Positions 331-59,792 of a stretch of 61,234 bases of DNA are shown one piece after another. The notes beneath the pieces were generated by a model that saw only the letters and a program-made list of their open reading frames with translations, was not told where the DNA came from and made no database searches. This DNA is from Pelagibacteraceae bacterium AG-447-E22 (GTDB lineage: Bacteria; Pseudomonadota; Alphaproteobacteria; Pelagibacterales; Pelagibacteraceae), in NCBI GenBank assembly GCA_003212295.1, contig QCQC01000004.1:1-61234 (forward strand). Reading direction: 5' to 3'. The position numbers and the translations under genes are program-made. Position 1 is the stretch's first letter. Each line of letters begins with the position of its first letter.

Positions 331-941
331 ATGACTAATAAAATAGCAGAACATATGAGCAGTTTAATACCAATGGTTGTTGAGCAGTCAAGCAAAGGTG
401 AAAGAGCTTATGATATTTATTCAAGATTATTAAAAGAGAGAATTATTTTTTTAACAGGTCAAATAAATGATAACGTAGCATCTTTAGTAACTGCACAACT
501 TTTGTTTTAGAAGCAGAGGATCCAAAAAAAGAAATTTATTTATATATTAACAGTCCAGGTGGATTAGTAACTGCTGGTCTTGGTATTTATGATACAATGC
601 AATATGTTAAACCAAAAATTTCTACATTATGTATTGGTCAAGCAGCATCAATGGGATCTTTTTTATTGTCAGCAGGAAGCAAAGGAAAAAGGTTTTCATT
701 ACCAAATTCTAGGATTATGGTTCACCAACCTTCTGCCGGCTTTCAGGGTCAAGCAACAGATATCGAAATTCACGCTAATGAAGTTTTATCATTAAAGAAA
801 AGATTAAACGAAATCTATTCAAAACACACTGGTAAATCAGTTGATGAAATTAAATCTGCTCTTGAAAGGGATAACTTTATGACAGCAGACTCAGCTAAAT
901 CTTTTGGTTTGATAGACGAAGTTGTAGAAAAAAGATCTTAA
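331..941 (+). pseudogene. clpP: ATP-dependent Clp protease proteolytic subunit ClpP, interrupted by a single-base frameshift
   Basis: ClpP is the tetradecameric serine peptidase that degrades substrates unfolded by ClpX. The frame from ATG 331 reads [20 protein letters not shown] and runs through SLVTAQLLF, then hits TAG at 508-510. The rest of ClpP continues at once in the next frame ([19 protein letters not shown] onward) to TAA at 939-941. One extra T in the T4 run just before the TAG would give one continuous protein of about 203 residues, the normal length. The catalytic Ser (GQAASMGSF), His ([11 protein letters not shown]) and Asp ([14 protein letters not shown]) all lie after the break. 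The gene is either genuinely broken or, more likely, carries a sequencing or assembly error, because ClpX next door is intact. An internal ATG at 597 could start only a fragment lacking the N-terminal region. Confidence 0.9.
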
Positions 942-4874: not shown

Positions 4875-4907
4875 ATATTAACTGCATTTTATAACAACTA
4901 TTAAATC

Positions 4908-4935
4908 TTGACCTTAATAGCTTAAAAGATATAAC
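4908..4935 (+). promoter_or_regulatory. Candidate sigma70-type promoter for the tRNA pair
   Basis: TTGACC (4908-4913) and TATAAC (4930-4935) are separated by 16 bases and match the -35 and -10 consensus at 5 of 6 positions each. Transcription would begin near 4942, about 10 bases before the mature tRNA-Val. The -35 overlaps a 7-bp inverted repeat (4898-4904 with 4914-4920). This is the best-formed promoter in the window. Confidence 0.55.
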
Positions 4936-4951
4936 TCACTATTTTGGTTAT

Positions 4952-5027
4952 GGGCGGTTAGCTCAGTTGGTAGAGCATCTCGTTTACACCGAGGGGGTCA
5001 AAGGTTCGAGTCCTTTACTGCCCACCA
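4952..5027 (+). tRNA. tRNA-Val (anticodon TAC)
   Basis: A full cloverleaf of 76 bases can be drawn. The acceptor stem GGGCGGT pairs with ACTGCCC with one G-U pair, the D stem is GCTC/GAGC, and the anticodon stem TCTCG/CGAGG encloses loop TTTACAC with anticodon TAC. The T arm contains GGTTCGAGTCC, and the terminal CCA (5025-5027) is genomically encoded. It is followed 16 bases later by tRNA-Asp in the same orientation, so both are probably cut from one precursor. Confidence 0.95.
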
Positions 5028-5043
5028 AAAATGAATCATAAGT

Positions 5044-5120
5044 GGGGGTGTAGCTCAGTTGGTTAGAGCGATCGCCTGTCACGCGATAGGTCGAGGGTTC
5101 GAGTCCCTTCACTCCCGCCA
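5044..5120 (+). tRNA. tRNA-Asp (anticodon GTC)
   Basis: A 77-base cloverleaf: acceptor stem GGGGGTG pairs with CACTCCC, the D stem is GCTC/GAGC, and the anticodon stem ATCGC/GCGAT encloses loop CTGTCAC with anticodon GTC. The T loop contains GTTCGAGTCC, the discriminator base is G as usual for tRNA-Asp, and CCA (5118-5120) is encoded. It probably shares a transcript with tRNA-Val upstream. Confidence 0.95.
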
Positions 5121-5134
5121 CTTATCTTAATAAA

Positions 5135-5166
5135 TGTCAAAAAAAGCGATTTTTATTTTGTATAAT
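5135..5166 (+). promoter_or_regulatory. Candidate promoter for the nuo operon
   Basis: A perfect TATAAT at 5161-5166 sits 50 bases before the nuoA start codon. The only -35-like element is TGTCAA at 5135-5140, 20 bases upstream, so the -35 match is weak. It lies in the sole sizeable gap (95 bases) before a 23.7-kb run of same-strand genes, which makes a promoter here very likely even though the exact boxes are uncertain. Confidence 0.45.
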
Positions 5167-5215
5167 GTGACCTATCACCACTTCATCTAACTATAAAAAA
5201 TGATATATATTCTGC

Positions 5216-5584
5216 ATGACTGCGGAATTTTTAAAAGACTATTTACCTATAATAATTTTCCTATTTGTTGCTTTAGGTTTAAGTGCAGCATTTATAGTAA
5301 TTAATTTTATTTTATCACCAAAAAACCCTGATCCCGAAAAGCTATCTGCTTACGAATGTGGATTCGAACCCTTTCAAGATTCGAGGATGGAATTTGATGT
5401 CAGATTTTATTTGGTAGCTATTTTATTTATTATATTTGATCTTGAAATAGCATTTCTTTTTCCATGGGCTATCTCACTTGGAACTATTGGTTTTTTAGGT
5501 TTTATCTCAATGATGATTTTTTTATTTATACTCACTATAGGATTTATATATGAGTGGAAAAAAGGTGCATTAGATTGGGAATAA
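5216..5584 (+). CDS. nuoA: NADH-quinone oxidoreductase subunit A
   Basis: NuoA is a small membrane subunit of respiratory complex I (NDH-1), at the joint between the membrane arm and the quinone-binding peripheral arm. The 122 residues form three predicted transmembrane helices (about 11-31, 65-85 and 93-113). The conserved loop [10 protein letters not shown] between helices 1 and 2 and the acidic segment [11 protein letters not shown] in helix 2 are clear family marks. It opens a complete nuoA-N operon; nuoB follows after 12 bases. There is no obvious Shine-Dalgarno sequence before the ATG. Confidence 0.97.
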
Positions 5585-56657: not shown

Positions 56658-58439
56658 ATGTTAGAATTTTTGAAAAAAAATATATTCATTATCATTCTAT
56701 CTAGTATCACACTATTCATTGGATTTTTAACATTTTTAACATTCATAAACAGAAGTTTTATTGAATTAACCCAAGAAAATTTACAATATTTATTAATTAT
56801 AAATATTCTACTCTTATTTGTATTATTCATTTTTATTTTTTTTGAAATAAAAAAATCAATTAAAAACGATATTGATAAAGATGGTCTAAATTCTAATAAA
56901 AAATATATAACTTACTTTTCATTATTTACATTAATCCCATCTATTTTAATCTCAATATTTTCATTATTTCTATTTTCATTTGCATTAGAAAAATATTTTG
57001 ACAAAAAAGTAACAACAGTTGTAAATAATTCCTATGAACTTGCAAAAAATTATGTTCAGGAAGTTAGAAATAAAGTTGAAGCAGATATTATTTTAATTGC
57101 CTTTGATGCTAATAAAAGTGCAAAATTTTTGAATAACGATCCCATTGAATATAAAAGATTTTTAAGAACCCAAAAATTAATTAGAAGTGTTGATGAAATT
57201 CACATTATTGATGAAAATAAGAATTTAATATTCTCTTCAGAGGAAAGTGAAAAATATAAACCACCTGTTGATAAAGCTTTAAAATTGGTTTTAGAGGATG
57301 ATAGACCATTAAAGATAATCGATGCTCCTAATAATATTTCAGCTGCCATAATTAGACTTCAAGCCTATGATGATAGATTTTTATACGCTGTAAAATTTTT
57401 AGATCAAAATATATCAAATTATCTTACAGAGTCACAAGAGGCGATAAATTTTTATTATACAGTTGAGGAAAGAAGCACAGGTATTAAAGTTTCATTTATA
57501 TTAATTTATATAATTATTGTTTCTTTACTTTTATTTATTTCCATAACAATTGCTATAAGATTTTCATCAAGATTTTTTAGGTCTATAAATAATTTAATAT
57601 TAGCTTCTACAGAAATTGGTCAAGGTAATTTGAATACAAAAGTTCCAGAAATTAAAACAGATAAAGATATGGAAATTCTTAACAAGAATTTTAATTCAAT
57701 GATCAAAAGATTAAAAAGCCAACAAGAGAAATTAATAATTAACGAAAGATATAAAGCCTGGGGTAATTTGTCTAGAAAACTTGCACATGAAATAAAGAAT
57801 CCACTTACCCCAATATTGTTAACTATAGATAGAATAAAAGACAAATACACTTCTAAGATATCTCAGGAAGATCAATCAAATTTTAAGGAAAACTTAAAAA
57901 TTATAGATAACCAAATCAAGCAAATAGAAAATTTAGTTAATGAATTTTCTGATTTTGCAAGAATGCCAAAACCCATTTTAAAACAAAATGATTTAATTAA
58001 AATTCTACAAGAAAATATTAAGTTAATTTCAGAAATAGATAAAACTATTAATATTGAATTAAAAAATAATAAAGATATAATTTTTTTAAATTGTGATAAA
58101 GAACAAATAGCTAGAGTATTTTTTAACCTACTTAAAAATTCTATTGAAAGTATTCAGCAAAAAATTGAAAAAAACCCTAATTTTAATAAAAAAATATTAA
58201 TTGAAATTTTTGATAATAATGACCATATTAAATTTAACTTGATCGATAATGGTGTTGGATTTAATAATTTAAATAACAATATTAGTGAAATTTTGAACCC
58301 TTATTTTACAACAAAAAAGAATGGAACAGGACTGGGATTATCTATAGTTAACAAAATTATTAATGACCACAATGGTGAACTTGAATTCTTTTCGATAGAA
58401 GATGGAGCTAAAATAGAAATTAAATTTAGAAAAATATGA
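56658..58439 (+). CDS. ntrY: Sensor histidine kinase NtrY (short form)
   Basis: NtrY is the membrane sensor of the NtrYX two-component system, linked in alphaproteobacteria to nitrogen and redox control. The 593 residues have three N-terminal transmembrane helices (about 8-30, 42-64, 88-110), a periplasmic sensor region, a fourth helix at about 277-298, a HAMP domain, the phospho-accepting His377 in KLAHEIKNPLTPI, and an ATPase domain with NLLKNSIESI, DNGVGF and GTGLGLSIV. It is shorter than typical NtrY (roughly 750 residues), and I see no PAS domain between HAMP and the His box. It overlaps ntrX by four bases. Confidence 0.92.
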   Translation: MLEFLKKNIFIIILSSITLFIGFLTFLTFINRSFIELTQENLQYLLIINILLLFVLFIFIFFEIKKSIKNDIDKDGLNSNKKYITYFSLFTLIPSILISIFSLFLFSFALEKYFDKKVTTVVNNSYELAKNYVQEVRNKVEADIILIAFDANKSAKFLNNDPIEYKRFLRTQKLIRSVDEIHIIDENKNLIFSSEESEKYKPPVDKALKLVLEDDRPLKIIDAPNNISAAIIRLQAYDDRFLYAVKFLDQNISNYLTESQEAINFYYTVEERSTGIKVSFILIYIIIVSLLLFISITIAIRFSSRFFRSINNLILASTEIGQGNLNTKVPEIKTDKDMEILNKNFNSMIKRLKSQQEKLIINERYKAWGNLSRKLAHEIKNPLTPILLTIDRIKDKYTSKISQEDQSNFKENLKIIDNQIKQIENLVNEFSDFARMPKPILKQNDLIKILQENIKLISEIDKTINIELKNNKDIIFLNCDKEQIARVFFNLLKNSIESIQQKIEKNPNFNKKILIEIFDNNDHIKFNLIDNGVGFNNLNNNISEILNPYFTTKKNGTGLGLSIVNKIINDHNGELEFFSIEDGAKIEIKFRKI

Positions 58440-59698
58440 CAGTAGAAATTTTAATTGTTGATGATAATTCAGATATTAGAAATATTTTGAATGAATTAAT
58501 AATTGACGCTGGTTATAAAACCAGAATAGCAGCAAATTACAATCAGGCGCTTACCGAAATTGATAAAAAAATGCCTGATGTTGCTATTTTAGATGTTAAG
58601 TTGGATAAAGGTGACAACGATGGTATTGAATTATTATCACATATAAAATCAAAAAATAAAGATGTTCCAGTAATTATAATAACAGGTCATGCAAATGTTG
58701 AAATGGCTGTTAGCTCACTTAAACATGGTGCATTTGAATTTATTGAAAAACCATTTGATCAAACAAGATTGTTGAATTTTATTAAAAGGGCTGTTGAAAA
58801 TCTAAATTTAAAATCTCAGAATAAAGAATATGAATCAAAACTATTTTATTCTTATGATTTAATTGGAGATAGTAAAAATATTTTGACAATTAAAGATCAA
58901 ATTGAAAAAATTTCTATTACAGAAAGTCGTATTTTGATCAATGGGCCGTCTGGATCTGGAAAAGAACTTATTGCGCGAAAAATACATAAAAAATCAAAAA
59001 GATTTAATAAACCTTTTGTAATATTGAACGGAGCACTTTTAGATGCTGATAAATATGAATTAGAACTTTTTGGAGAGGAAAAAGAAAATGGATCTATATC
59101 GTATGGAGCTTTAGAAAAAGCTAATGAGGGAACACTTTTAATTGATCAAGTTTCAGAAATACCTTTAGCAATACAATCAAAAATTTTAAGAGTTTTAACT
59201 GACCAAAAATTTAAAAGACTAAATGGCAATAATGATATAAATGTTGATGTTAGATTAATTTGTTCTTCAAGCAAGGAATTAAAAGAAGAGATAAAATTTG
59301 GTAATTTTAGAGAAGATCTATATCACCGTCTTAATGTATTTGAAATTAATATTAAATCTTTAAATGATAGAGTTTCTGACATTCCGTTGTTAATAAAATA
59401 TTTCTCTAAAAAAATTTCTGAAAATTACAATATTAAAAGACTAGATATTGATGATAATGATAGTTACATACTAAATCATAATTGGAAAGGAAATGTGAGA
59501 GAGCTAAGAAATTTAATAGAGAGAATTGCTATACTCCAACCCGAGTCTAAAGAAAAAATATCATACATAGTTAAGGAATCCCTTAAAAGTGATGATTTAA
59601 ATGAAAAGGTTACAGAAAATAGTTTGTCTATTCCATTAAAAGAGGCTAGAGAAAGATTTGAAAAAGAATACTTAACACTTCAATTAAAAAAAATTTAA
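58436..59698 (+). CDS. ntrX: Response regulator NtrX, reading frame ends early by frameshift
   Basis: NtrX is the partner of NtrY. The frame gives 420 residues: a receiver domain (1-120) with phospho-acceptor Asp53, an AAA+ domain with Walker A GPSGSGKE at 170-177, and a linker ending [13 protein letters not shown]. It then stops at TAA 59696-59698 in an A8 run. Skipping one A would continue in the other frame through the Fis-type DNA-binding helix (59694-59792). The AAA+ domain is also degenerate: the segment after ELFG (210-213) reads [13 protein letters not shown] with no GAFTGA loop, and the Walker B Glu is Gln238 (LLIDQVSE). A sigma54-independent role is therefore likely. Confidence 0.9.
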
Positions 59699-59792
59699 TG
59701 GAAATATTTCAAAAACAGCCAATTTTGTTGGAATGGAAAGAAGTGCTCTTCATAGGAAGCTTAAAGGATTAGGAATAAAAGAATTTAATTAA
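59694..59792 (+). pseudogene. ntrX: Out-of-frame C-terminal DNA-binding segment of ntrX
   Basis: In the frame that follows the ntrX stop, codons from 59694 read [20 protein letters not shown] and then [12 protein letters not shown], ending at TAA 59790-59792. This is the Fis-type helix-turn-helix that ends NtrX proteins, and it reconnects perfectly if the A8 tract at 59686-59693 had seven A's. It has no start codon of its own, so it is expressed only if the frameshift is a sequencing error or is bypassed by slippage on the A-run. trkA starts immediately after. Confidence 0.88.

What the first reader, a model, noticed from the sequence alone, without database searches (positions are those of the whole stretch)
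59680..59792. ntrX loses its DNA-binding helix through an extra A in an A8 tract
The NtrX frame ends at a TAA directly behind AAAAAAAATTT, and the missing Fis-type helix continues in the next frame. Seven A's would give one intact protein. Options are a sequencing error, a true loss of DNA binding, or transcriptional slippage on the A-run that would make a mixture of long and short NtrX. The last would be an interesting regulatory switch in a genome with very few two-component systems.
Basis: partly seen in the sequence, partly recalled or inferred. Interest (0 to 1): 0.5.

Follow-up and report, generated by a model that had tools for sequence, protein, structure and literature searches.

The report
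Probable sequencing error in regulator ntrX
One extra A cuts the DNA-binding end off a regulator gene in this marine SAR11 genome, but nearly all relatives are intact and housekeeping genes show the same kind of break at the same low rate, so it is most likely an assembly error rather than a biological switch.

Summary
In detail: in this SAR11 contig the ntrX frame (58436-59698) ends at a TAA behind an A8 run (59686-59693), and the rest of the Fis-type helix lies one frame on, to 59792. The switch reading is not supported. Of 133 genus genomes whose ntrX 3' end I read (own included), 131 are intact, with A runs of seven or fewer; the only other broken one is G020, with A10 at the same site. 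The A8 form was at ntrX in 0 of 398 other genomes. The out-of-frame tail is still fully constrained, so the change is very recent or not real. The same contig has a second one-base frameshift, in clpP; the two lie 508 and 1,541 bases from the contig ends. Housekeeping genes are broken by one-base shifts about as often: pyrG at least 2 of 151, gltX 2 of 143. A published single-cell workflow benchmark of 3.0 indels per 100 kb predicts 1.8 for this contig; 2 are seen. Best reading: amplification, sequencing or assembly indel (0.78); a real private loss is second (0.15). Raw reads would decide.

The parts
56658..58439 (+). ntrY, sensor histidine kinase (intact)
   Evidence: Pfam NtrY_N, HAMP, HisKA, HATPase_c
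58436..59698 (+). ntrX as assembled: receiver and AAA+ domains, C-terminal helix cut off
   Evidence: ORF; Pfam Response_reg, Sigma54_activat, AAA_lid_14; best solved match 5m7n, E 1.2e-100
59686..59693 (+). A8 run; relatives have A7 or fewer, G020 A10
59694..59792 (+). rest of the Fis-type HTH in the next frame, with its own TAA
   Evidence: Pfam HTH_8 30.4 bits on 59691-59789; 0 amino acid differences from 92 of 211 relatives over 31 codons
59793..61184 (+). trkA, downstream gene (intact)
   Evidence: Pfam TrkA_N, TrkA_C
331..510 (+). first 59 codons of clpP, ending at TAG after T4 (505-508): a second one-base frameshift on this contig
   Evidence: PF00574 match 394-546
507..941 (+). rest of clpP in another frame
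   Evidence: PF00574 match 501-932; ORF end 941

Best explanation
The extra A is a one-base insertion error made during DNA amplification, sequencing or assembly; the sampled cell probably carried an ordinary full-length ntrX. Shown: the frameshift is in the assembly, nearly all relatives lack it, the tail is unspoilt, the same contig has a second one-base frameshift in clpP, and housekeeping genes in the same genus sample show the same frequency of such breaks. Inferred: that this assembly comes from an error-prone workflow such as single-cell amplification, and that its reads would show A7.
For: 131 of 133 ntrX tails intact; A8 form at ntrX in 0 of 398 other genomes (the second match, G047, is on C1 while its ntrX is on C6); all 80 loci of the second, overlapping collection intact. 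Tail of 31 codons: no amino acid difference but 6-15 silent ones against 92 of 211 relatives. Second frameshift in clpP, where 59 of 61 genomes with a match have 205 or more open codons. Controls: pyrG at least 2 of 151 (G180 A8 run, G046 T7 run), gltX 2 of 143 (G195, G046) broken; Fisher ntrX 2/133 against 4/294, p = 1.0. Benchmark quoted as 3.0 indels per 100 kb for one single-cell workflow (PMC8443664, passage) predicts 1.8 here; 2 seen.
Against: No reads could be seen, and the origin of this assembly is not shown; that it is a single-cell genome is inferred from the plate-style titles of its relatives. In the same benchmark series the low-GC test strain tended to have the fewest indels (PMC5519541, passage). 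G020 is broken at the same run (A10), a mild hint of a local hot spot. An A run is also where a true mutation is most likely. G012, a one-contig genome, seems to have dxr broken at an A11 run, so real A-run frameshifts in SAR11 are not excluded.
Confidence: 0.78

Rival explanations
1. A real, very recent, private mutation: replication slippage added one A in this cell's lineage and NtrX lost its DNA binding. The protein would keep receiver and AAA+ domains but have no known output.
For: The A8 run is the longest in the gene, where slippage is most likely; a very recent change explains the unspoilt tail. ntrX is not in every genome: 26 of 29 high-quality ones match. In Caulobacter ntrX could be deleted in minimal medium (PMC5892882, passages), and a natural ntrX pseudogene is known in Ehrlichia (PMC9937504, passages).
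Against: Second one-base frameshift in clpP on the same contig, and the same frequency in pyrG and gltX, which a living cell should not lose.
Confidence: 0.15
2. Transcriptional slippage on the A run makes a mixture of short and full-length NtrX.
For: Such rescue is reported in the AT-rich symbionts Buchnera and Blochmannia (PMC3017870, passages). Tail constraint is intact. In Buchnera, transcription deletions in runs also rise with run length (PMC5574713, passages).
Against: The run is not conserved; the frame needs loss of one A or gain of two, while single insertions dominate at A/T runs; selection against runs is often seen only from nine bases, and AT-rich genomes without it may suppress slippage (PMC1088944, passages). 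clpP is broken at a T4 run, which slippage would not rescue.
Confidence: 0.03
3. DNA-level phase variation: cells of the population differ in run length and so switch NtrX DNA binding on and off.
For: C. jejuni flgR, another NtrC-type response regulator, switches by single-base changes in A and T runs (PMC3930126, passages). G020 is broken at the same run.
Against: Only 2 of 133 genomes are out of frame, equal to the housekeeping background; 65 of 133 have a run of six or fewer, so the site is not kept unstable.
Confidence: 0.03

Closest known systems
One-base indels in single-cell genome assemblies (WGA-X workflow benchmark)
   Same: One-base frameshifts in otherwise intact genes, about as many as the benchmark predicts (PMC8443664, passage)
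   Different: Reads and origin of this assembly were not available; the benchmark used other bacteria
NtrX of alphaproteobacteria (PDB 5m7n, full-length match)
   Same: Receiver and AAA+ domains align over 418 residues; HTH present in the relatives and in the next frame here
   Different: HTH out of frame in this assembly; Walker B pair DQ instead of DE
C. jejuni and H. pylori FlgR
   Same: NtrC-type regulators with frame changes at A/T runs (C. jejuni) or working without a DNA-binding domain (H. pylori) (PMC3930126, passages)
   Different: FlgR acts through sigma-54; no sigma-54 DNA-binding domain was found in this 68%-complete genome, so an HTH-less NtrX has no such route
Slippage-rescued frameshifts of Buchnera and Blochmannia
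   Same: AT-rich reduced genome, frameshift in an A run, unspoilt downstream frame (PMC3017870, passages)
   Different: Some of those are conserved between populations or species; this one is private, and the run is short

Membership tests
NtrX response regulator | Receiver with phospho-acceptor aspartate, NtrC-type AAA+ domain | tested here: met
   Pfam; D53 in 112 of 112 sequences
NtrX response regulator | Adjacent ntrY | tested here: met
   NtrY_N at 56658-58439
NtrX response regulator | C-terminal Fis-type HTH in frame | tested here: not met
   Out of frame in the assembly, encoded in the next frame; in frame in 131 of 133 genomes, the other break being G020
Transcriptional slippage gene | Slippery run conserved among relatives | tested here: not met
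   65 of 133 have a run of six or fewer, A8 only in own
Transcriptional slippage gene | Mixed run lengths in RNA, both products made | not testable with these tools
   No transcript or protein data
Phase-variable gene | Out-of-frame alleles more frequent than in housekeeping genes | tested here: not met
   ntrX 2/133 against pyrG plus gltX 4/294, p = 1.0
Phase-variable gene | Run-length mixture within one population | not testable with these tools
Assembly or amplification indel | Similar indels in housekeeping genes of comparable assemblies and elsewhere on the contig | tested here: met
   pyrG, gltX; clpP on this contig
Assembly or amplification indel | Reads do not support the assembled run length | not testable with these tools
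   No reads available

The most novel reading that the evidence does not exclude
The A run at the base of the NtrX HTH is a rarely flipped hot spot in SAR11, hit independently in two distant lineages (own A8, G020 A10). Cells of a population differ in run length, or their RNA does, so that some carry an NtrX that receives the signal but cannot bind DNA: a switch in a group with almost no two-component systems.
Probability: 0.04. Interest if true: 0.55.

Novelty: not a real feature. Interest (0 to 1): 0.08.

Why it matters
Mainly as a caution. In this genus sample about 1.5% of copies of each gene checked carry a one-base frameshift, housekeeping genes included, so one frameshifted regulator in one such assembly is no evidence of lost function or of a switch. 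If the switch were real, one of the most abundant bacterial groups would have an unexpected way to vary its regulation.

Tried and rejected
Pattern search with one A too many: it did not match the window itself; discarded and repeated correctly.

Other apparent frame changes in the window: near 5166-5237 the relatives' stop-to-stop frames extend upstream of an ORF (5216-5584) that is intact here, and 4898-5063 lies in what reads as a pair of tRNA genes (judged from the sequence, no tRNA search run); I do not count either as a coding frameshift. Own pyrG, gltX and dxr are intact.

Ribosomal rescue: the tail frame needs a +1 shift on AAA AAA ATT; no stop sits in the next codon and the site is not conserved, so I gave it no separate weight (inference). 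Restart: the ATG overlapping the stop (59697) opens the third frame, not the tail frame (sequence).

Faulty own steps: the run table picked the wrong gene (trkA) in 12 rows; the clean count is. The silent/amino acid comparison used a wrong offset and was replaced. The loop regex matched nothing; replaced by the alignment. G147 is not syntenic with the window (49 hits) and says nothing about the background.

Rows dropped from the 'broken' counts. Cut by a contig end, checked: gltX G123, pyrG G123, G167, G174. Judged from coordinates only: pyrG G060, G119, G098, G061; gltX G041, G130. Not listed by the tool, so not seen: the short pyrG matches of G019, G021 and G158; so pyrG is 'at least 2 of 151'. 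ntrX G080 ends with its contig. clpP G025 is partial and unresolved. dxr: G012 and G093 broken of 107, partial rows such as G060, G021, G045 and G199 unresolved, G093 not looked at in detail. In one search, small flags in G033, G012 and G180 (queries of 93-150 aa or a fragment of a broken gene) were not resolved.

Papers: a search for SAR11 with frameshift and homopolymer and for NtrX with SAR11 or Pelagibacter listed nothing on this site; I read listings only, except the papers cited with passages.

Full report
What is there. Its close relatives in the named collection are Pelagibacteraceae or Pelagibacterales, that is SAR11; most titles carry plate-style AG-, AH- or SAG-MED names, and at least one, MED-G42, is a plain MAG (80 loci). 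That AG-/AH- names mean single-cell genomes is recalled; many of these records are nevertheless titled 'MAG'. The gene order is ntrY, ntrX, trkA. The ntrX frame runs 58436-59698 and stops at a TAA behind A8 (59686-59693). The rest of the Fis-type helix lies in the next frame and ends at 59792.

Survey of relatives. In a sample of 201 genus genomes 134 have ntrX, own included. I read the 3' end of 133 of them (30 loci, 100, three); the 134th, G080, runs off its contig. 131 are intact: 66 with A7 and 65 with a run of six or fewer. Two are broken: own (A8) and G020 (A10). The A8 form as a pattern matched 2 of 399 genomes: own, and G047 on contig C1, whereas its ntrX is on C6. So A8 at ntrX was seen in 0 of 398 others, although not all of these hold the locus.

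Constraint on the tail. Over 31 out-of-frame codons the window has no amino acid difference, and 6 to 15 silent ones, against 92 of 211 relatives (both collections, with overlap). Over all 211 the means are 10.4 silent and 2.1 amino acid differences; for the 43 in-frame codons just upstream they are 12.4 and 13.9. The tail is the more constrained part, so the extra base is very young or not real.

A second frameshift on the same contig. clpP is split at T4 (505-508): the first 59 codons from 331 end at a TAG and the rest follows in another frame to 941. In this incomplete genome PF00574 finds these two pieces and one weak match elsewhere (23.7 bits). Of 61 genomes with a clpP match (81 searched), own has 155 open codons, G025 a partial 128 that I did not resolve, and the other 59 have 205 or more. 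The two indels lie 508 and 1,541 bases from the contig ends. I noticed this afterwards, and G195 and G180 have their breaks far from ends, so I give it modest weight.

Background rate. I asked how often housekeeping genes are broken in the same 201-genome sample. pyrG: at least 2 of 151 (G180, A8 run; G046, T7 run). gltX: 2 of 143 (G195, A8 where the frame wants nine by my reading; G046, near a contig start). dxr: at least 2 of 107 (G012, G093), several partial rows unresolved. ntrX: 2 of 133. Fisher's test of ntrX against pyrG plus gltX gives p = 1.0. In the matching regions of the relatives, flags one clear coding frameshift each in G195 (40 kb) and G180 (60 kb), none in G036, none that I count as its own in G033, and dxr in G012; some small flags were not resolved. 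A paper that used the WGA-X single-cell workflow quotes its benchmark as 3.0 indels per 100 kb (PMC8443664, passage), which predicts 1.8 for this contig; 2 are seen. Against this, the low-GC test strain tended to have the fewest indels (PMC5519541, passage), and the origin of this assembly is not shown.

Why not a switch. The run is not kept slippery. The window holds 34 A runs of nine or more. Baranov and colleagues find selection from nine bases in many genomes and suggest suppressed slippage in AT-rich genomes without it (PMC1088944, passages). Restoring the frame needs loss of one A or gain of two, while insertions, mostly of one base, dominate at A/T runs in E. coli and Buchnera; in Buchnera deletions in runs do occur and rise with run length (PMC5574713, passages). 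The known NtrC-type regulator that works without a DNA-binding domain, H. pylori FlgR, acts through sigma-54 (PMC3930126, passages). No sigma-54 DNA-binding domain was found in this genome, and SAR11 is described as having only two sigma factors and four two-component systems (PMC13198564, passage). An HTH-less NtrX would have no known output.

What remains open. G020 is broken at the same run; two hits at one site among 133 is a mild hint of a local hot spot, for errors or for true mutation. G012, a one-contig genome, appears to have dxr broken at an A11 run, so real A-run frameshifts in SAR11 are not excluded. The odds are: artefact 0.78, real private mutation 0.15, slippage 0.03, phase variation 0.03.

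A side finding. In SAR11 NtrX the Walker B pair is D237-Q238: DQ in 108, DH in 2 and DE in 2 of 112 sequences (close relatives, with some genomes counted in both collections). The solved NtrX 5m7n has DE there, and its loop, like SAR11's GSISYGALE, does not read GAFTGA (alignment; the 12 commonest loop forms, 101 of 112 sequences; the motif and the identification of 5m7n as Brucella NtrX are recalled). A glutamate-to-glutamine change at this place is the classic way to stop ATP hydrolysis (recalled). This would fit a regulator that has given up sigma-54 activation and acts by DNA binding alone, which makes the loss of the HTH all the less likely to be tolerated as a switch.

Noticed in passing
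window 59144-59149 (NtrX D237-Q238): The Walker B glutamate of SAR11 NtrX is glutamine in 108 of 112 sequences (DH 2, DE 2), with no GAFTGA-like loop and no sigma-54 found in the own genome: probably an ATP-binding but non-hydrolysing regulator.
   Followed up: partly
window 331-941, T4 at 505-508: clpP is split by a one-base frameshift; no other strong clpP match was found in this 68%-complete genome.
   Followed up: yes
L130 and L199 (G020 C6): G020 ntrX is also out of frame at the same site, with A10; its tail continues in another frame as [32 protein letters not shown].
   Followed up: partly
G012 C1 518636-519791 (stretches L124-L126): dxr of a one-contig genome appears split at an A11 run: error, or a real slippage-rescued frameshift.
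   Followed up: partly
L262 (G046 C10): pyrG (T7 run) and gltX (about 250 bases from the contig start) are both broken by frame shifts on one 12.5-kb contig, which suggests poor sequence quality of that assembly.
   Followed up: no
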